A stretch of 64,000 bases of DNA from Comamonas koreensis (GTDB lineage Bacteria > Pseudomonadota > Gammaproteobacteria > Burkholderiales > Burkholderiaceae_C), in NCBI RefSeq assembly GCF_014076495.1, contig NZ_CP043575.1:2356001-2420000 (forward strand), read 5' to 3'. Shown piece by piece: positions 37,328 to 45,421 of the stretch; position 1 is the stretch's first letter; every line of letters begins with the position of its first letter. A model generated the notes under the pieces. It searched no databases. It was not told the DNA's origin and saw nothing but the letters and a program-made list of their open reading frames with translations. The translations under genes were made by a program, and so were the position numbers.

Positions 37328-37559
37328 AATATTAGCGAATAACGGCGGAGGGCTCAAGCGGGTTGGTACGGGGGAGGGGTGGGGGTGTCGCTCAGGTGAT
37401 TGGGGAAGTGAGTCCAAGGGTCGCCGGGGTATGGTGCTGTGTATGCGGGTAGATGCCCATCATCGACAAGGTTAAACGTACTCGGAATAAAGCTCGAGCT
37501 TTTCGTAAGGACTTCGAGGCTCCGCGTAGATTGGACCTCCAGTCGGCAAGATAGGGATT

Positions 37560-38260
37560 GAATAATTCTGGTAACAGCTTAAAAAGGCGCTGATATGGGA
37601 TAGCTGGATGCTCGGCGATACCTTGCACGAGATCGGCAAGCTCCTTGAACGGCTGCATACCTCGATCCGTCCCATGCTAAGTACAACAGACGTCCTTTTT
37701 CCCGCTGACCTAAAGCATCGACCCCGCTTAGCGTTAACGATGTCTGAGAGAGAAGAGATCTTCTAAGCATTAGCTGCTGTAGAATTGATTTGCTGCGTTG
37801 CCAAGTGCTTGAGAAGAGTTGGCTCCACCATTAGTTACGAGCTGCTGTGCTATGACGGAAGGACTTGCTACTGAGCGGCTAAGTCCGTTGCTGTATGCCT
37901 GGGAGCGTGCTAGTCGCCCCAAGGCATGCAAATTGGCATGTAACCCCGCAGTGGCTCAGATCTTGGCGGTTAAATTGCAAGGTCTATTGTCACCCTGAAT
38001 AGATGGCGGGATGGCTCAAGCGAACTATCTGGACCAAAAGGTGTTGCAAGTGTCTCATGAAGCCCTTTGCCACACGCTATTCGTCCAACCACGTAGCGCA
38101 TTGAACAAGGAGCTCCTGGAGCAGTCGTGCATACCAGAGGAATGCGTCGCTCAAGACACTACGAACAGTAAACTCCAATCTATGGTCGCATCGTCGATGC
38201 AGTGCCTATCTGCAAAGCCCCGCTAAATGCTGATGCTTAAATCAATGATGGTGCAGAGTT
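37560..38260 (+). pseudogene. Decayed IS30-family transposase
   Basis: Translating the plus strand across stops and frameshifts gives the IS30 order of motifs: ALIWDSWMLGDTLHEIGKLL, then LALTMSEREEI, LRRVGSTISYELL, AWERASRPKACKLACNP, and finally VSHEALCHTLFVQPRSALNK with MRRSRHYEQ and YGRIVDAVPI in a shifted frame. These match the N-terminal helix-turn-helix and the start of the catalytic domain (AWxRAxRPKxCKLA, VSHETIYRxLFVQARG). At least four in-frame stops and two frameshifts are present. The catalytic C-terminal half is missing, so it is inactive. Confidence 0.8.
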
Positions 38261-38325
38261 TTATTAAAAGGCCTTTTTCTAATTCAAAATATCATCATAG
38301 GTAATAATAATGGATTTGGGTATTT

Positions 38326-41300
38326 TCAAACCGGACGTCCCTTGTAGCCAGCCGGTGGTGACTTCTTCTCTTTATGTGCTTTAGCTGTTGCAGTTGACTT
38401 GAATAATGAAGGATCTATCTCGAAAACACTGACCGCGACTTGTTGATTGCCGTGTACGTGAGCGACGAGTCGATCATGCTTGGGCAAAGGAACCTGAGCC
38501 GTTGATCCTCCAAACTCTCCTGAGTTTGCCAGAATAACAGGCTGGTACATGTGGAAATGCAGTGCTGCGACCATATTGTCGAAGGTCTGAACATCTTGAT
38601 TTAGAGCTGCAACTAGAAAAACGTCGGATCTGTCACGAAGATCGGCTACAAGGTCTAGGTCCGTGGCGTCGAAGCAAATCGCGGCTGCAACTCTCGTGCG
38701 AGTTTGTGCTCCGATAGGAAGCTCAACCAGTGTCATGTGTGGTCTATATCCCTTAATGCCCATTTTTGCTTCAAGTTTCATAGGATGCTTTTTCCCCTGC
38801 CATACATACTGGAACGTTCGGCCGTGTGCCTCAGATTCCTCGCGAATAATCCACAGGCCTTGATTGATAGTTCCTCCTGCACGCGGGGAATCAAAGAATG
38901 TGAGACCTGCGAAAATATTTGCTTTGAGATCATCCGACAGGCGTCTGAGGAGAAACGTGTGTTCAGGATGGATAGCTAGTTCGGGAAAAACAAGTAGATC
39001 CACGATAGGCTCAGAACTACTATCGTTCTCGAAATTTTGTGTGGCGCTGGCCCATGTCTTAAGCTTCTGATGTGTGAGCCGACAAACTTCTGCGAGATGC
39101 CTCCGATGTTCTGCAATAGCTTTCGGCGTCCAGTGCGTGGGATCCTTCATATTGAACTCATCAAGGCGTGGCCGCATAGGCTGAACAATAGCTACGCGGA
39201 GTGGACGATCTACCAAAGGTCGATGGTCGTCGACGGGTACAACATACATGGGCGTTCTGCTTCGAGGTCCAAACAAAGCAGCCTGAACGTGCATTCGCTT
39301 TTCGACATAAGTCAGAAGGTCTGTACGATTTTTCACGGAGAAAATCTCGTCCCGTCCATCCGCTCGAAAGTCCACGCCAGGCCATTGAAGAAGACAGGAC
39401 AGAAGCCCAGAGAGCCAAGGGGAAACAGGGGCGGGTTCGTCGAATAACGCTCTTCCAGAGTTCATTAATCCGAAACGTCGCAGATACCATGTACTTCTCA
39501 GGCCTGAATAGCGACCAAAATCCTCTGTTACGAGATATCGACGCGAGGTAAAATCAATCTCGCCCGTAAGAGCCGACCGCAAGATTCTTCCTAAGCCATA
39601 CAGCCACGCTTTATCATCATCGACCCACTCGGGTATCTCGCACAGCGGATCTGAACGGTCAGGTGAATCTATTTTTGAAACTAACAAATACTCTGAATCT
39701 ATCGGAACAGCATGAAGTCCTGGCCATTCCTTGCACTCGAGAGTAATGTCGGCTACACCTAGCCCATTTGCTAGAAGCTTTTCAATACCCTCTTTCCTTA
39801 GTAGCGCTGCGGCAAGCATGAGTACTCCATTCTCTTGCGAGAAAGGGTTGCTCGGCTGCGCGATAATCATGGAAAGTGGGGCGGTGGTCTGCGCGCCATT
39901 CTCGATCGTCGTAGTGGCCCCTGCAACACGACTAGTTTCCATAAGCGAGCGAGGAATGTATTGCTTCCAATTCGTGGCTGCGCCACGCGCTTTCATAGCG
40001 CTTAAAATGAGATCTGGTCTATTTAGACATACCGTTTTGACTACACTAGATGTTATCTCCGGAGGCGCTGAACGAAGAACCTCTGTGAACCAGGTCCCAA
40101 ACCGCTTAATATTGGGGTGCAGCTGTTGTGCCACTAGTGCGAATGGAAGAGCCTCCTGTACTTCGTTTGGCGTTACAGTCTGGAATTGTGCGACCTTCTG
40201 CAAGATAAAATATGAATCCAGTTGTTCATCCTTGACCTTTACCGCTCCTATAAAACAATAGTCATCCATTGACGATAAGTAAAGCATTGCCTGTTGAAGC
40301 ACGTACCAAGGGAGCGTTGAGGACCTCTCTATAATACGTCTAGCAAACGCCGCTAGATCCTCGCGATAGCCATCCGAATCGATGCCATCAGGATAATCCT
40401 CGGATTGTCTAAATCCAGTCTCGATGGCCCCTGCACGAAAGATATCTGCAGTAATGTATTGAGCCGTCTTAATCTCACGACGCTGGTCAAGGGTAGGTTC
40501 GGCTGGAGGGTGAAAGAGTTTGATTTCCAATGCTTCAAGAATAGGGGATAAAAGACGAGGGTGAGGAAATAAATCCAATCCGCATCGAAGTAGTAGTGCC
40601 AGCGCAGGGTTCTGAGCCCAGCAATTAATGAGCTTTCTAGCAGATGACTCAAACTCATGGGAGAGAAGCTGCCCTAGAGTAACTTTGTCTGAGAGTGAGC
40701 TTCCACCCTTCACTAAACCTTCCCGATCAGTCATCGCGAGACGATGTCGTAATACCTGAGTTAGTCTAGATGCAACGAAGCGCTTAACAGTATCATCCCT
40801 GACATCGGTATTTGTCACCGCTATATTGGCTAACCCCATCCGCGAGCGACTCCGTTTTTCCTCTTCCTCATCTATTTGGTCTGACATCCAGAGAAGGCCG
40901 TCAAGGCCACCGGCAGCCTGAGTTAGCGACTCTAAGTCAAACGTTCCGCTAACCTCTCCCTTGAGTAGCTCCATCAATGCTGAAACATGACTTTGGGCTG
41001 CCATAGCTCGATAGGGTTTTGCATCTGACTTGTGAGAAGAGAATTCAAGTTTCTTTTCGGCTCCTAGTTTTTTGCAGTGGTCCTGAAGGAGTTTTCCAAC
41101 TGTGCATTCAACCCGCTCTTTAATTGCCGTCAAGCTCTCGGGTGTGAGGCCTCCTCGCGCTTCAACGACGATTCTCATGTCATCAACATAGCGGCAGTAA
41201 TCACGGATATGAATCTCAAGATTTTGATCGAGTAAGATTAGTGGGAAGTCCAACGGCGCGACTGCTAATGCTTTCTCTTGCATAATACGGTCAAAACGTA

Positions 41301-42321
41301 CTAGGTAGGCATTTGCTAAGAACCCGGCCGCTACTAGCCCTTGAGGGATGCCTAATGGCAGTTCGGTGCAATTAACGCCGCCAATTAGGTCAGATTGGTC
41401 ATGTTCGCTTTGCTGCCACTGCCATTTGAGAATTTTTTTAGCTGAATTCCAGAATTTTGCATCCGAAGATAGCTCTTGAGGCAGCCCTTTTCGATCTGCA
41501 TGCTCTGCTTCGAGGACCTGTAGTTCTTTCACCAGCGCATTTTGATCAATGTTGTCGAAGAAAGATTTAATATCCAACGAAACCACAAAAAGCTCACGAC
41601 GCACGCTTATCCGTGGAGAAAGTTCAGCACATACCTGTCGAGGTCTTGCGAGGAATGTCCGATAGTCCTGAAAATACTGGCGATAGGTTTTACCGTTACC
41701 CCAAGAAAAAGTAGCTTCATCTTCTCCGGTTTGCGACTTCACCCAAGAGCAATGAAGTCGGTTGCCATAGCTGACCACGAGGCGACTCATACGCCCCTCG
41801 TCGTCAGTTCCTGAGGGATTTCCTTGAGCGGTTTCCACTGCTTCTGCTAAGCAAGCCATAACCGCGGTAGCAAGTGTCTGATCGCGTACAGAAATATGTG
41901 CAAGTGGCCTAAGCTTCAGCGCGCCAGCCATATCGGAACTTTCTCCTATAAGAGTATCATTCTCCATTGCCACTCTGGGTCGCCACTCATTGAAGTGTGG
42001 ACGGTTTATATCGTCCACCGCTTCATCAAGCAAAAGCTCGGATGGCGTCGGTGTTTGAAAATCCCATCGTGCATTTTTGGGAGCAGGAACTAATCGAAGG
42101 TCATCCGTCTTGAAGTTTCGCTTTTCAAGTTGTTTAGCCCATTCATTTAGGCGATCTTCAAGGTTCAGTGCAGAAGCATCGAGCTCAAGTACATCTGCAT
42201 ACCAATTATGCTGACGGATAAATGCGTGTGATTTCTTCCAGGCTTGGGAGAGAACTACTACATTTACAAGTCGATTCCATTGAGGAGGTAGCGCTTGAAA
42301 CTGGCTTTTAATTATACTCAT
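38326..42321 (-). CDS. Reverse transcriptase-nitrilase fusion (DRT type 1 / UG1-like defence protein)
   Basis: 1331 residues. The reverse transcriptase domain spans about residues 150-480: motif A aspartate D250 in VVSLDIKSFFDNID, the LPLGIPQGLVAAGF loop, and the catalytic YVDD at 378-381. A long helical region follows (about 480-1040). The C-terminus (about 1065-1310) is a carbon-nitrogen hydrolase: E1114 (LLVFPELAIH), a lysine in GKKHPMKLE (K1177, K1178 or K1182), and C1216 (AAAICFDATDLDL). RT plus C-terminal nitrilase is the architecture of DRT type 1, an anti-phage system. All catalytic residues look intact. It is the last gene of the minus-strand island genes, 121 bases after the ATPase gene. 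Confidence 0.85.
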   Translation of the reverse strand: MSIIKSQFQALPPQWNRLVNVVVLSQAWKKSHAFIRQHNWYADVLELDASALNLEDRLNEWAKQLEKRNFKTDDLRLVPAPKNARWDFQTPTPSELLLDEAVDDINRPHFNEWRPRVAMENDTLIGESSDMAGALKLRPLAHISVRDQTLATAVMACLAEAVETAQGNPSGTDDEGRMSRLVVSYGNRLHCSWVKSQTGEDEATFSWGNGKTYRQYFQDYRTFLARPRQVCAELSPRISVRRELFVVSLDIKSFFDNIDQNALVKELQVLEAEHADRKGLPQELSSDAKFWNSAKKILKWQWQQSEHDQSDLIGGVNCTELPLGIPQGLVAAGFLANAYLVRFDRIMQEKALAVAPLDFPLILLDQNLEIHIRDYCRYVDDMRIVVEARGGLTPESLTAIKERVECTVGKLLQDHCKKLGAEKKLEFSSHKSDAKPYRAMAAQSHVSALMELLKGEVSGTFDLESLTQAAGGLDGLLWMSDQIDEEEEKRSRSRMGLANIAVTNTDVRDDTVKRFVASRLTQVLRHRLAMTDREGLVKGGSSLSDKVTLGQLLSHEFESSARKLINCWAQNPALALLLRCGLDLFPHPRLLSPILEALEIKLFHPPAEPTLDQRREIKTAQYITADIFRAGAIETGFRQSEDYPDGIDSDGYREDLAAFARRIIERSSTLPWYVLQQAMLYLSSMDDYCFIGAVKVKDEQLDSYFILQKVAQFQTVTPNEVQEALPFALVAQQLHPNIKRFGTWFTEVLRSAPPEITSSVVKTVCLNRPDLILSAMKARGAATNWKQYIPRSLMETSRVAGATTTIENGAQTTAPLSMIIAQPSNPFSQENGVLMLAAALLRKEGIEKLLANGLGVADITLECKEWPGLHAVPIDSEYLLVSKIDSPDRSDPLCEIPEWVDDDKAWLYGLGRILRSALTGEIDFTSRRYLVTEDFGRYSGLRSTWYLRRFGLMNSGRALFDEPAPVSPWLSGLLSCLLQWPGVDFRADGRDEIFSVKNRTDLLTYVEKRMHVQAALFGPRSRTPMYVVPVDDHRPLVDRPLRVAIVQPMRPRLDEFNMKDPTHWTPKAIAEHRRHLAEVCRLTHQKLKTWASATQNFENDSSSEPIVDLLVFPELAIHPEHTFLLRRLSDDLKANIFAGLTFFDSPRAGGTINQGLWIIREESEAHGRTFQYVWQGKKHPMKLEAKMGIKGYRPHMTLVELPIGAQTRTRVAAAICFDATDLDLVADLRDRSDVFLVAALNQDVQTFDNMVAALHFHMYQPVILANSGEFGGSTAQVPLPKHDRLVAHVHGNQQVAVSVFEIDPSLFKSTATAKAHKEKKSPPAGYKGRPV

Positions 42322-42442
42322 GTAGTGATTTGCTTGTTGTAGTTTGAGTTACTGTCGTACGGTGCAGGGTTTTCAATAAGTACGAGTCGCCCTGGGAGTT
42401 GTTGCATAACGGTTTCTTTAAATCTTTCAATCGACCTTGAAA

Positions 42443-42991
42443 TTATCTAAAATGCCTAATCGACTCAATTTTAGAGACCTGTTTTAACCATGTCTCGACC
42501 TCCTGGGGGCTTGGCGAGTCGAGAGTCTTAAAGGGGATGCCCAAAATCTCAGTTACTTCAACGCTATGGCTGTCCTCAGCCTTATTGAAATCAGCAAGTT
42601 CAGCTTCAGACCAGCTCATGTCCTGCCTTGCATGCAGGCGCTCAAGCAAAACTGGCACCGGACTACGGATCAATAAGACAGACGAGCACTCCAGTGCGCG
42701 GAAAACGTCGATAGGCAGCCTTTCATGAATGCCTGGCGCTCGTCGAAGCACAAAGTGGCCGTCTATGACAAGTGTCGAGCCACTCGCGCGGATACGTCTG
42801 ACGGCCGAGATGAGCGCTGCCTGGTTCCGGTCAACGTCAGACACCACCTTCATCCTGTCCCACGTGGCCTGTCCTCGCTCCTCTTGAATTAGTTGACTGG
42901 CCGTAGCATGCACCAAGCCTAGATTTTTACAGGCTGGCTTCGTGGCAAAGGTTTTCCCCGCGCCATGGACTCCTGCGACGAAGATGGTCAT
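42443..42991 (-). CDS. Small P-loop ATP-binding protein (kinase-like)
   Basis: 182 residues. MTIFVAGVHGAGKTFATKP is a Walker A loop at the N-terminus. GSTLVIDGHFVLRR and SVLLIRSPVPVLLERLHAR fit the nucleoside/adenylate-kinase-like fold, with the arginine-rich LERLHAR as a lid-type segment. Its ATG overlaps the ASCH stop (ATGA), so the two are translationally coupled. The phosphate acceptor, if any, is unknown; a nucleotide or RNA end would suit the neighbouring ASCH and PIN domains, but that is inference. Confidence 0.75.
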   Translation of the reverse strand: MTIFVAGVHGAGKTFATKPACKNLGLVHATASQLIQEERGQATWDRMKVVSDVDRNQAALISAVRRIRASGSTLVIDGHFVLRRAPGIHERLPIDVFRALECSSVLLIRSPVPVLLERLHARQDMSWSEAELADFNKAEDSHSVEVTEILGIPFKTLDSPSPQEVETWLKQVSKIESIRHFR

Positions 42992-43455
42992 TTGGACTCC
43001 TCCGCTAGGCCGAAATGCTTGCCGATGCGGCGCAGTTCTGCTGTAGTCAAGTAGCGAAAGGACTGTGGTGGTCGGAACCCTTTAAACAGTGACTTTGGTC
43101 GAATCGGCCTTTCCGGACTGGTCAGCTTTCCGAGCAAGATGCCATAGGCTTGGCTCTTGTCTGCGAAATACTCCATTAGCTCCTTGCGTTCGAGGCCCGG
43201 TCCACGCACGCGGCATTTCGTCCAGACGGACGCAGGTGACGCGCTAATCGTCCCATCAATCTCCACGATTCCGACTAGACACTGGACCGGAGAGCTGGAA
43301 TAAATGACAGCCAGCCCAACGGGCTCGGCAGCCCATGACCGACGAAACTCCACTGTTTTGGTTCCCGCCAATATCTGCTCGGCAAACCTTGGCTTGACGG
43401 AAAGCAGAACGGCCCTAGGCCCCTGCGGCTGCAAGCACTCTTGAAAACGCGTCAT
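42988..43455 (-). CDS. ASCH domain protein (COG4933-like)
   Basis: 155 residues from the ATG at 43455 (MTRFQECLQPQ), overlapping the end of the upstream gene by 41 bases; a TTG at 43434 is also possible. AVLLSVKPRFAEQILAGTKT then VEFRRSW is the standard start of this ASCH subfamily. VIYSSSPVQCLVGIVEIDGT and KSQAYGILLGKL complete the fold. It is the middle gene of the PIN-GNAT/ASCH/ATPase operon. ASCH domains are presumed to bind RNA or modified nucleotides; no direct function is known for this group. Confidence 0.82.
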   Translation of the reverse strand: MTRFQECLQPQGPRAVLLSVKPRFAEQILAGTKTVEFRRSWAAEPVGLAVIYSSSPVQCLVGIVEIDGTISASPASVWTKCRVRGPGLERKELMEYFADKSQAYGILLGKLTSPERPIRPKSLFKGFRPPQSFRYLTTAELRRIGKHFGLAEESK

Positions 43456-44887
43456 CGGAAATCTTGGTGATAGATTGAATGTTGCCGGCGACCACACCTT
43501 CTTTCAGAAGACGTTTGAGAGCGGGCGGTTCTGGGAAATGCTTTACGAGTCTAAAGAGGATGACCTTCGTTGGCCGAGTGGCCATATCTTCAATATCTTT
43601 GATGCTATAGACGGTGCGCCTACTGACCATGGCCGCGATGCTTGCTGCATCACTAAGCACTGCGAAACGATCTACTACGCCGAGCGAGGTCACTGCCTGC
43701 TCATCGGCTGACCTGTAGAACAGCAATACGTCGCCTGATCTAATCTGATTGGAGGCGGCATGGCAAAGGTAGGCCAGCTTGATGGCATTCCCTACGCTCC
43801 CTTGGGGTGTAAATAGTTCGGATCGAAGCGCCTGATAGTCGGGGAAAAGTAATCGATGGAAATCCTGCTGAATCGGTACTAGAAACTTCTGGACCTGTTG
43901 CCCGCTCTGGTAATGGGGGTAGAACCGTCGTACAAAGTCCAGTGCAGAGAACCCCTCTGTATCTGGAGCCTTGATTGGGTGCTGCTTCACGAAGACCCGG
44001 TCCGCCTCATATGAGCCCACATCATCAAAACCAAAGTCGACGAGGAGGTTGACGAGGTAGGCATGCTTTTCCACGTCAGCGTGGATGAATATGTGTTCGC
44101 AGGCATTTTCGGTTCCGTAGCGGAATGCAGCCTTCAGAAAGAGTTCGCCAATTTTTCGTCCACGGACACCTTGGCCGACCTTGAATGTGCAGAGTTTTAG
44201 TGCCTTTCCGTCAAGGCGCTTGCCTTCGCTGGTAACGACCTCATCAGTCTGAACATCGTATATGCAGATCGCACCTAGTACGCCTGACTCGTCTCGATAG
44301 GTCCAGGCCTTGCGATTCTCTCTTGCCTTTCTGCGGAACCAGCCATCGAAACCGTCATAACCCGCTCGTAAACTGTCGAAGAAGATGTTCGCAAGCTCTG
44401 GCGTCAAACTGTGCAGTGGTACGTCGTGAATATTCGGTAGCACGACTTCGTGTGGCTGATGTAGCCTTCGCAACCAATCTTCGGCAGTTTGGATATTGTA
44501 GGTTCGGTGAGCCAGACCGCGTGCTCGTGCCTTCGTCAGAAGGCCTTTGTCTTCCGTGACTAGCGCATGTGCAGCGTCGCACTCGAGAGCGTACAAAATT
44601 TCGTTGTCGCAGGCATCGTTCGGGCTCGTAGCGGAGGTGTTCCAGGGGCATTTGACTAGATGCTCTAGAGCTGGATACCGGCGGACATGCTCCAAATTCC
44701 TGCCGCGCCGGCCCAGATCTGCATCCCTTTCGAAGTCTTCGATGCTGGCGGGGTGGTAGACCAACTTGTGGCCTCCCACAAGCGCTAATCGATGGAAATT
44801 TGCTAGGTTGTCGTCTAGTACTGCATGCGAGTCTTGCAACGGTATCAGGACATTGGTGTCGAGTAGAAACGTAAGTTGCTTTGGCAC
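43415..44887 (-). CDS. PIN-GNAT-PUA-like three-domain fusion protein
   Basis: 490 residues from the GTG at 44887, chosen because GGGAGGAG lies 4 bases before it and the PIN domain starts at once (MPKQLTFLLDTNVLIPLQD); an ATG at 44908 is also open. The PIN nuclease domain covers about residues 5-145, with acidic residues in LLDTN, DNEILYALE and VTEDKGLL. A GNAT acetyltransferase domain covers about 160-310 (GVLGAICIYDVQ, CTFKVGQGVRGRKIGELFLKA split over the CoA loop). The C-terminus has a PUA/EVE-like segment (GDVLLFYRSADEQAVTSLGV). It heads the operon with the ASCH and ATPase genes. I recognise no named system with this set. Confidence 0.8.
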   Translation of the reverse strand: MPKQLTFLLDTNVLIPLQDSHAVLDDNLANFHRLALVGGHKLVYHPASIEDFERDADLGRRGRNLEHVRRYPALEHLVKCPWNTSATSPNDACDNEILYALECDAAHALVTEDKGLLTKARARGLAHRTYNIQTAEDWLRRLHQPHEVVLPNIHDVPLHSLTPELANIFFDSLRAGYDGFDGWFRRKARENRKAWTYRDESGVLGAICIYDVQTDEVVTSEGKRLDGKALKLCTFKVGQGVRGRKIGELFLKAAFRYGTENACEHIFIHADVEKHAYLVNLLVDFGFDDVGSYEADRVFVKQHPIKAPDTEGFSALDFVRRFYPHYQSGQQVQKFLVPIQQDFHRLLFPDYQALRSELFTPQGSVGNAIKLAYLCHAASNQIRSGDVLLFYRSADEQAVTSLGVVDRFAVLSDAASIAAMVSRRTVYSIKDIEDMATRPTKVILFRLVKHFPEPPALKRLLKEGVVAGNIQSITKISDDAFSRVLAAAGA

Positions 44888-44908
44888 AGAGCTCCTCCCT
44901 AGCCTCAT

Positions 44909-45421
44909 GCGTGTCTCGGGCTGTGCGCACTGACCCGGATTTACCGCATCGAATGATTTACATTTTGCTGTCTTTGAAACATCTTACTGACTAATCTAAC
45001 CTCTGAGATGATCTAAGGAATTATTTGCCGATTTTCGTTCTTGAATCATTGTTGCCGTTGTGCGCTCGCGCCATCTTGGCGATGCGCAGAACCATGGGGG
45101 TAGTAAATGAAGTGTCTAGGTGCCCACTTTTTGTGAATAAGCAGACTTTAGTGGAAATCAAAGGAGCGTCTGAATCTGCTGCATGGCGGCTCTCTAGCGT
45201 CCTGAATCGGACAACTATCAGGTCAATAGGAAGCTACCTCACCTAATCCAAAAACTAAGAAATCAGCGACGAAGACTGCACGAAGTGCAAAACTGAGCAA
45301 AACAAGATTTCGAGCCTTAACGCCCTAACCAGGATCCAACAGCCCGTCCTAACTCACCGCCAAGTTCAGAATCCTTTGCCGATCGCCACCAGCCAATCCC
45401 TTGTCTTTCCTCATTCGCCCC
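44909..45421. other. Island right flank, no gene seen
   Basis: Short open frames here have no recognisable domains or ribosome-binding sites. The upstream part should hold the promoter of the PIN-GNAT operon. Base composition returns to the high-G+C style at about 45.35-45.40 kb, marking the approximate island edge. Confidence 0.45.

What the first reader, a model, noticed from the sequence alone, without database searches (positions are those of the whole stretch)
43415..44908. PIN-GNAT-PUA fusion heading a coupled operon with an ASCH protein and a P-loop ATPase: possible unnamed defence or RNA-modification system
One protein joins a PIN nuclease, a GNAT acetyltransferase and a PUA/EVE-like domain. 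Its gene overlaps an ASCH gene by 41 bases, which overlaps a small P-loop ATPase gene by four. All three lie in an AT-rich island beside a DRT-type reverse transcriptase. PUA, EVE and ASCH folds recognise modified bases or RNA, PIN cuts RNA, and GNAT can modify tRNA-bound amino acids or proteins, so the set could sense or act on a modified nucleic acid. The function is inference; I recognise no named system with this composition.
Basis: partly seen in the sequence, partly recalled or inferred. Interest (0 to 1): 0.78.

Follow-up and report, generated by a model that had tools for sequence, protein, structure and literature searches.

The report
PIN-GNAT-EVE/ASCH/kinase phage-defence candidate operon
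Three tightly coupled bacterial genes form a sound but untested candidate anti-phage, toxin-antitoxin-like operon of a type already described by others, sitting in a chromosomal slot where sister species keep other phage-defence genes.

Summary
In detail: a PIN-GNAT-EVE protein (start probably GTG 44887), an ASCH protein and an adenylate-kinase-like P-loop protein overlap head to tail (41 and 4 bases) in an AT-rich island.

It is not an unnamed composition. PADLOC lists genes 1 and 2 as candidate system PDC-M11 (E 7e-132, 1.5e-45). Bell et al. 2020 (PMC7641849) describe (PIN)-GNAT-EVE + ASCH + AAA_17 operons as predicted toxin-antitoxin/defence modules. One phage record labels a PIN-less pair GevT toxin/GevA antitoxin. 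My searches found no paper testing function.

Added here, from the 80 best of 347 relatives: ASCH is adjacent in 78, the kinase in 57. ASCH and kinase are one protein in 6, in two separate tree regions, so they probably work together. An HNH_5 gene recurs beside the operon in 10, not in the window. DRT1 relatives occur in 0, so the reverse transcriptase is probably separate. Three sister genomes with the same flanks carry Thoeris, Gabija, or an SMC/Lamassu-like pair there.

Best reading: an RNA-targeting abortive-infection module with ASCH-kinase as its control half; target unknown.

The parts
43415..44887 (-). PIN-GNAT-EVE protein (PDC-M11A), 490 aa from GTG 44887; the ORF extends to ATG 44908
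   Evidence: PADLOC PDLC04422 E 7.1e-132; AF2 pLDDT 91.3; conserved PIN acids and GNAT RGxKxGE motif; start:
42988..43455 (-). ASCH protein (PDC-M11B), probably from ATG 43455; the ORF extends to GTG 43497
   Evidence: PADLOC PDLC04424 E 1.5e-45; family profile hits ZmASCH 5guq E 1.9e-29
42443..42991 (-). adenylate-kinase-like P-loop kinase (AAA_17), intact Walker A, DGH, R118 and R122
   Evidence: Pfam AAA_17 E 1.3e-14; profile and fold match to NMP/adenylate kinases (the fold is of relative L092); residues; no PADLOC hit at E<=1
38326..42321 (-). DRT1a reverse transcriptase-nitrilase, judged a separate defence system in the same island, not part of the trio
   Evidence: PADLOC PDLC03745 E 0; YVDD in the translation; 0 of 80 relatives
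37405..45420 (.). variable island (approximate ends; the right end falls at 45180-45420 depending on the relative) between an enoyl-CoA hydratase gene and an SDR gene; a hot spot of defence genes in three sister genomes
   Evidence: flank alignments and cargo in L116-L118

Best explanation
It is a PDC-M11-type, toxin-antitoxin-like anti-phage module. Shown: three overlapping genes co-inherited as a unit, conserved putative active-site residues, a defence hot-spot location, and a homologous phage pair labelled toxin/antitoxin by its depositors. Inferred: the PIN-GNAT-EVE protein is the effector. Its EVE domain docks on a modified base in RNA (tRNA the likeliest), GNAT acetylates the target or its charged amino acid, and PIN cuts it, stopping translation in infected cells. 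The ASCH protein is the cognate restraining subunit, binding the effector or competing for the same RNA. The adenylate-kinase-like protein works with ASCH as an NTP-dependent or substrate-phosphorylating control switch. Phage interference with ASCH-kinase, or with the modified RNA, would release the effector.
For: PADLOC PDC-M11A/B. ASCH immediately downstream in 78 of 80 relatives, kinase next in 57 of 80 (the 80 are the closest of 347 found). ASCH-kinase fusion in 6 of 80 and PIN-GNAT-EVE-ASCH fusion in 1 of 80, with L057 apart from L087/L090/L092/L096 on the tree. PIN acids 65-67 of 67, GNAT G250/G254/E255 67 of 67, kinase K13/N56/Q57/G78/H79/R118/R122 43 of 43. Fold matches include the GNAT toxins 7byy (E 1.2e-5) and TacT1 7ak8 (E 3.5e-5), though NatD and others rank higher. 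Patchy: 6 of 399 genomes of the order, own genome included. All three sister genomes found with the same flanks (of 40 others searched in the genus) carry other defence or defence-like genes there. PIN-less phage homologue labelled GevT toxin with GevA antitoxin; both match PDC-M11. Bell et al. also predict TA/defence.
Against: No toxicity, antitoxin activity or phage protection was tested, and my searches found no paper reporting it. PIN has little support from sequence searches. The acetyl-CoA loop has Lys/Arg in 67 of 67 where the general motif has Gly (K252; motif recalled), so acetylation may be altered or lost. The kinase is not detected in 19 of 80 loci with room for it, so it is not essential. 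The closest studied ASCH relative, ZmASCH, is reported as a weak ssRNase, which fits an effector as well as an antitoxin. A prophage carries a PIN-bearing copy (L009), so PIN does not mark host defence strictly. The GevT/GevA names come from one record only. The defence link of the G413 cargo rests on partial, weaker profile matches.
Confidence: 0.55

Rival explanations
1. A counter-weapon (hypothesis of Bell et al. 2020): PIN-GNAT-EVE destroys acetylated aminoacyl-tRNAs made by phage GNAT-EVE proteins, so it is an antidote rather than a toxin.
For: PIN-less GNAT-EVE genes occur in phages and prophages (L008, L137). Both kinds sit in one operon in L018 and L078. Stated in PMC7641849.
Against: Of the 80 relatives only L078 also has a separate PIN-less GNAT-EVE gene in the fetched stretch. 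A prophage carries the PIN form too (L009).
Confidence: 0.15
2. A base-modification system: GNAT acetylates a base in DNA or RNA as a self mark, EVE and ASCH read it, and PIN or neighbouring nucleases cut unmarked nucleic acid (base acetylation is the idea Bell et al. credit to Iyer et al. 2013).
For: EVE and some ASCH domains are described as readers of modified bases. Relatives of three N6-methyltransferase/HsdM-like query proteins lie in 19 of 80 loci (the three query loci included, no background control). An HNH_5 gene lies near the operon in 10 of 80.
Against: None of the 50 listed Foldseek matches is described as a base acetyltransferase. PIN domains act mostly on RNA (general knowledge). 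The window has no HNH_5 gene of this family.
Confidence: 0.15
3. The trio and DRT1a are one composite system.
For: Same strand, 121 bases apart, same island.
Against: 0 of 80 trio loci have a DRT1 relative in the fetched flank (up to 8 kb, often less at contig ends). DNA conservation with L020-L022 covers the three genes and a short leader only.
Confidence: 0.03
4. Ordinary RNA-modification or nucleotide-salvage housekeeping genes.
For: The kinase is adenylate-kinase-like; ASCH proteins include the metabolic enzyme YqfB.
Against: Patchy distribution (6 of 399), island location with divergent GC, variable slot. The YqfB nucleophile position is Glu in 50 of 50.
Confidence: 0.07

Closest known systems
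PDC-M11 (PADLOC-DB 2.0.0 candidate system, proteins M11A and M11B)
   Same: Full-length profile matches for genes 1 and 2
   Different: No PADLOC model matched the kinase at E<=1. M11 profiles also cover PIN-less phage pairs. A candidate only; 0 papers in the library hold 'PDC-M11'
(PIN)-GNAT-EVE / ASCH / AAA_17 operons of Bell et al. 2020 (PMC7641849)
   Same: The same three genes and defence neighbourhoods
   Different: Here beside DRT1a; ASCH-kinase fusions and the HNH_5 neighbour are not in the passages I read (supplements not seen)
GevT/GevA of Escherichia phage PhiR47_2 (PV340567, annotation only)
   Same: GNAT-EVE plus ASCH with a 23-base overlap; both match PDC-M11
   Different: No PIN, no kinase found; lies between cI and kil/gam/bet genes of the phage
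ZmASCH (ZMO0922, PDB 5guq), reported ssRNase
   Same: The same ASCH family: profile E 1.9e-29 over nearly the whole domain; Tyr47 and Ser128 equivalents conserved (50 and 45 of 50, equivalence from the alignment)
   Different: The Lys53 equivalent is variable (Gln 25, Lys 16 of 50; Gln in the window)
TacT-type GNAT toxins
   Same: GNAT fold match to TacT1 7ak8 (E 3.5e-5)
   Different: Three-domain protein, PUA-like partner, Lys in the acetyl-CoA loop; NatD/Naa40 and other GNATs are better fold matches
Adenylate kinases of the archaeal type (e.g. 6pk5)
   Same: Fold (E 2.6e-10, TMt 0.71 in the L092 fusion model), Walker A, two invariant arginines taken as LID arginines
   Different: Conserved SA(S), NQ and DGH motifs; coupled to ASCH

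Membership tests
PDC-M11 / (PIN)-GNAT-EVE operon | M11A full-length profile match | tested here: met
   PDLC04422 E 7.1e-132, residues 14-495 of 497
PDC-M11 / (PIN)-GNAT-EVE operon | adjacent M11B (ASCH) gene | tested here: met
   PDLC04424 E 1.5e-45; 41-base overlap
PDC-M11 / (PIN)-GNAT-EVE operon | frequent AAA_17 gene in the operon | tested here: met
   AAA_17 E 1.3e-14; 57 of 80 relatives
Type II-like toxin-antitoxin system | toxicity of one gene neutralised by the neighbour | not testable with these tools
   needs expression assays
Type II-like toxin-antitoxin system | two tightly coupled operon genes | tested here: met
   overlap in the window; ASCH adjacent in 78 of 80
Anti-phage defence system | protection against phage | not testable with these tools
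   context only: hot spot
YqfB-type N4-acetylcytidine amidohydrolase | Thr nucleophile in K-x-x-T-x-R | tested here: not met
   Glu50 in 50 of 50 where YqfB has Thr24 (matched by motif spacing); K47 and R52 kept
ZmASCH-type ASCH ribonuclease | residues Tyr47, Lys53, Ser128 | tested here: inconclusive
   Tyr 50/50 and Ser 45/50 conserved, Lys53 equivalent Gln in the window
PIN nuclease | conserved acidic active-site residues | tested here: met
   D17 67/67; D62, D101, D120 66/67; D98 65/67; their catalytic role is inferred
PIN nuclease | significant match to a PIN profile or structure | tested here: inconclusive
   PIN_3 in 4 of 67; 3ix7 E 9.6e-4, 1o4w E 0.11
GNAT acetyltransferase | Q/RxxGxG/A acetyl-CoA loop (recalled) | tested here: inconclusive
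   R249 and G254 present, central Gly replaced by K252 (K65, R2 of 67)
Nucleoside monophosphate kinase | Walker A, conserved arginines, adenylate-kinase fold | tested here: met
   the substrate is not testable here
DRT1 composite system | recurrent linkage of trio and DRT1 | tested here: not met
   0 of 80 loci

The most novel reading that the evidence does not exclude
The operon is a two-part RNA reader-writer-cutter with a reader-guided kinase: PIN-GNAT-EVE marks and cuts a modified RNA, while ASCH and the adenylate-kinase-like enzyme form one enzyme that recognises the same modified nucleotide and phosphorylates it, or a mononucleotide released from it, to switch the effector off or make a signal. 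The ASCH-kinase fusions in two tree regions are its main support.
Probability: 0.15. Interest if true: 0.75.

Novelty: new member of a known kind. Interest (0 to 1): 0.42.

Why it matters
It turns a vague 'unnamed system' into a specific, testable candidate of a catalogued but uncharacterised kind, and argues the reverse transcriptase out of it. The ASCH-kinase fusions say which two subunits to purify together, the L064 natural fusion gives a single-chain effector-ASCH protein, and the SDR/enoyl-CoA hydratase slot is a small defence hot spot that can be mined in sister species. If the EVE/ASCH pair reads a modified RNA base, it would show which RNA modification bacteria guard or exploit during phage attack.

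Tried and rejected
DRT1 as partner: rejected, 0 of 80. ASCH as a YqfB-like ac4C hydrolase undoing a GNAT-made ac4C: rejected for lack of the Thr nucleophile. Kinase tied to PIN: rejected; the kinase also accompanies 4 of 10 PIN-less GNAT-EVE loci examined (L119, L121, L133, L136; not L008, L019, L120, L134, L135, L137), while two of those without it are annotated phages (L008, L137) (small, hand-picked sample; the second copy in L018, the cut copies L123 and L128 and the split copy L138 were left out of this count). tRNA linkage: tRNA genes in 14 of 101 loci scanned with no pattern, except a four-tRNA cluster next to the pair in prophage Lj965 (L137). Shared operator upstream of gene 1: by eye, only the last stretch with the ribosome-binding region aligns among close relatives. 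A first mixed alignment (A5) was discarded because its summary suggested that ASCH rows had been laid on the EVE domain. The tree used 74 of 80 relatives plus the window; the six left out (L061, L068, L069, L070, L073, L099) are split or cut copies. Residue counts use the rows of A7 (67 rows, one of them the PIN-less L078 gene), A9 (50 rows) and A8 (43 rows), chosen from the 80 loci as intact copies, plus the window.

Full report
WHAT IS THERE. The window lies in a 5.2 Mb single-contig genome. Between about 37.4 and 45.4 kb GC drops to 0.47-0.59 against 0.61-0.67 in the next few kb on both sides. On the minus strand run, in order of transcription, PIN-GNAT-EVE (43415-44908), ASCH (42988-43497 as ORF), an AAA_17 P-loop protein (42443-42991) and DRT1a (38326-42321). 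With ASCH starting at ATG 43455 the first overlap is 41 bases; the second is 4. The ORFs of close relatives L020 and L022, the GGAGGAG motif and the low-confidence first eight residues of the model put the true start of gene 1 at GTG 44887.

DOMAINS. Single-sequence Pfam support is modest: GNAT E 4e-4, EVE E 0.095, no PIN. Over the 67 members of A7 GNAT is hit in 61, EVE in 28, PIN_3 in 4 at E<=0.01. The N-terminal profile hits PDB 3ix7 at E 9.6e-4 (no function named) and a named PIN domain, 1o4w, only at E 0.11; none of the 50 listed Foldseek descriptions names a PIN domain. The PIN call therefore leans on the five conserved aspartates (65-67 of 67) and on Bell et al. The AF2 model is confident (pLDDT 91.3, pTM 0.83). 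The best Foldseek matches are an N-acetylglutamate synthase (poor superposition), ZmASCH (TMt about 0.7-0.8) and NatD, with the GNAT toxins 7byy and TacT1 lower; I take ZmASCH to match the EVE part, but the output does not give the aligned range. The acetyl-CoA loop reads RGxKxGE with Lys/Arg in 67 of 67 where the general motif (recalled) has Gly. The ASCH family profile hits ZmASCH at E 1.9e-29. ZmASCH is reported to bind nucleic acids and cleave ssRNA, weakly (PMC5615036, abstract and passages). Of its three tested residues, two are conserved in this family and Lys53 is not. The kinase profile matches UMP/CMP and adenylate kinases, after a designed nanoparticle chain at the top; in the model of the natural ASCH-kinase fusion L092 (pLDDT 91.0, pTM 0.80) the kinase part matches archaeal adenylate kinases. 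So it looks like an NMP-kinase-like enzyme with core residues kept, although Bell et al. call it an AAA+ ATPase.

CONSERVATION OF THE UNIT. A scan of genome contigs gave 347 confirmed relatives, of which the best 80 were kept and examined; the counts below are for these closest 80 only. 78 of 80 have the PIN part; the other two (L068, L073) appear cut at contig ends. ASCH follows directly in 78 of 80 (exceptions: L079 contig end, L078 rearranged). The kinase follows in 57 of 80; it lies elsewhere in the operon in L078, cannot be judged in three loci at contig ends (L059, L079, L082), and was not detected in 19 with room for it, also not with an iterated profile; 13 of these 19 are Bacteroidota. 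ASCH and kinase are one protein in L057, L087, L090, L092, L096 and L099. On the tree L057 lies in a different part from L087/L090/L092/L096 (split supported 97/88; L099 not in the tree), which suggests at least two fusion events, though transfer is not excluded. L064 fuses PIN-GNAT-EVE to ASCH. DNA similarity between the window and its closest kin L020-L022 spans at most 42464-45004, the three genes and a short leader, and stops before DRT1a. A DRT1 relative was found in 0 of 80 loci.

VARIABLE PARTNERS. An HNH_5 gene (Pfam E 8e-12 for L020) lies near the trio in 10 of 80: downstream within about 100 bases in L020, L021, L022, L023, L061 and, 1.9 kb off, in L036; directly upstream, touching or within 12 bases, in L080, L082, L085, L095. 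It is not in the window. Relatives of three N6-methyltransferase/HsdM-like query proteins (one confirmed by Pfam, two named by eye) lie in 19 of 80 loci, the query loci included (no background control). Two operons hold both a PIN-bearing and a PIN-less GNAT-EVE gene: L018 and L078. Plasmids: 32 of 72,556 records hold a relative, 18 of them over at least 80% of the query. Phages: 16 of 50,697, 2 of them over at least 80%, both records of psiM100. In 399 genomes of the order, 6 (own included) match PDC-M11A; in 398 of the phylum, 13 (own included) match the PIN-less profile at E<=0.001, three of them only by weak, short matches.

LOCATION. Of 40 other genomes searched in the genus, three (G403, G413, G427) have the same SDR gene at 95% and the same enoyl-CoA hydratase at 99-100% protein identity, 5.2-10 kb apart. 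Between these flanks (about 86-95% DNA identity in the main blocks) they carry, instead of the trio and DRT1a, ThsA plus several ThsB (Thoeris; ThsA E 3.8e-197), GajA and GajB (Gabija; E 4.1e-247 and 1.2e-200), and a protein partly like PDC-M36A (E 4.3e-21) with an SMC/Lamassu-like 884-residue protein (LmuB E 3.1e-22). So all four copies of the slot hold known or candidate defence genes, the G413 cargo on weaker evidence. This is the strongest independent sign that the trio is defensive; it says nothing on mechanism.

WHAT IS KNOWN. PADLOC lists genes 1 and 2 as PDC-M11A and B. PDC-x systems are described as unpublished candidates from Payne et al. in PMC11811056 (passages), and 'PDC-M11' occurs in no paper of the library. 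Bell et al. 2020 (PMC7641849; section 10 in full, otherwise passages including part of the abstract) describe the same composition, credit Iyer et al. 2013 with the earlier description, predict toxin-antitoxin function, and say that none of the modules in these systems has been experimentally characterised. The phage PhiR47_2 record names the PIN-less pair GevT toxin and GevA antitoxin; my searches for these names listed no paper that looked to be about them (listings only).

MECHANISM. I commit to an RNA-targeting, abortive-infection type module (0.55 overall; tRNA as target perhaps 0.35; the kinase as part of the control half with ASCH perhaps 0.5). Steps shown are architecture, coupling, conservation and context. 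Toxicity, target, trigger and the role of acetylation and phosphorylation are inferred. The invariant Lys/Arg in the acetyl-CoA loop leaves open that GNAT has changed or lost acetylation. The YqfB idea (ASCH erasing a GNAT-made ac4C) fails on the missing nucleophile.

VERDICT. A real, well-conserved member of a known, functionally uncharacterised kind.

Noticed in passing
window 37405-45420; L116, L117, L118: A small defence hot spot between an enoyl-CoA hydratase gene and an SDR gene: trio + DRT1a here, Thoeris, Gabija, and a PDC-M36A-like/SMC-like pair in three sister genomes.
   Followed up: yes
L117:2529-6497: An SMC/Lamassu-like 884-residue protein beside a protein whose C-terminal half matches PDC-M36A and whose N-terminus looks Mrr-like by eye: possibly another unnamed pair in the same slot.
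   Followed up: no
L018:7398-11271; L078:5586-9452: Operons that hold both a PIN-bearing and a PIN-less GNAT-EVE gene with ASCH and kinase.
   Followed up: partly
L137:1771-3866: In prophage Lj965 the GNAT-EVE/ASCH pair lies directly behind a cluster of four tRNA genes.
   Followed up: no
L009:3001-4846: Archaeal prophage psiM100 carries a PIN-bearing copy, mostly within an annotated inserted fragment (IFa), so the PIN form is not confined to host defence.
   Followed up: no
L020-L023, L036, L061, L080, L082, L085, L095: HNH_5 gene recurrently near the trio, on either side in different lineages; absent in the window.
   Followed up: partly
L133:1938-2453; L136:3919-4515; L121:53-598: A second, free-standing GNAT gene lies near PIN-less GNAT-EVE genes.
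   Followed up: no
control genome Bacillus subtilis: The PIN-less profile PDLC04419 finds a match in the named control genome Bacillus subtilis, the only one of 14 controls that rings: a possible laboratory model for the PIN-less form.
   Followed up: no
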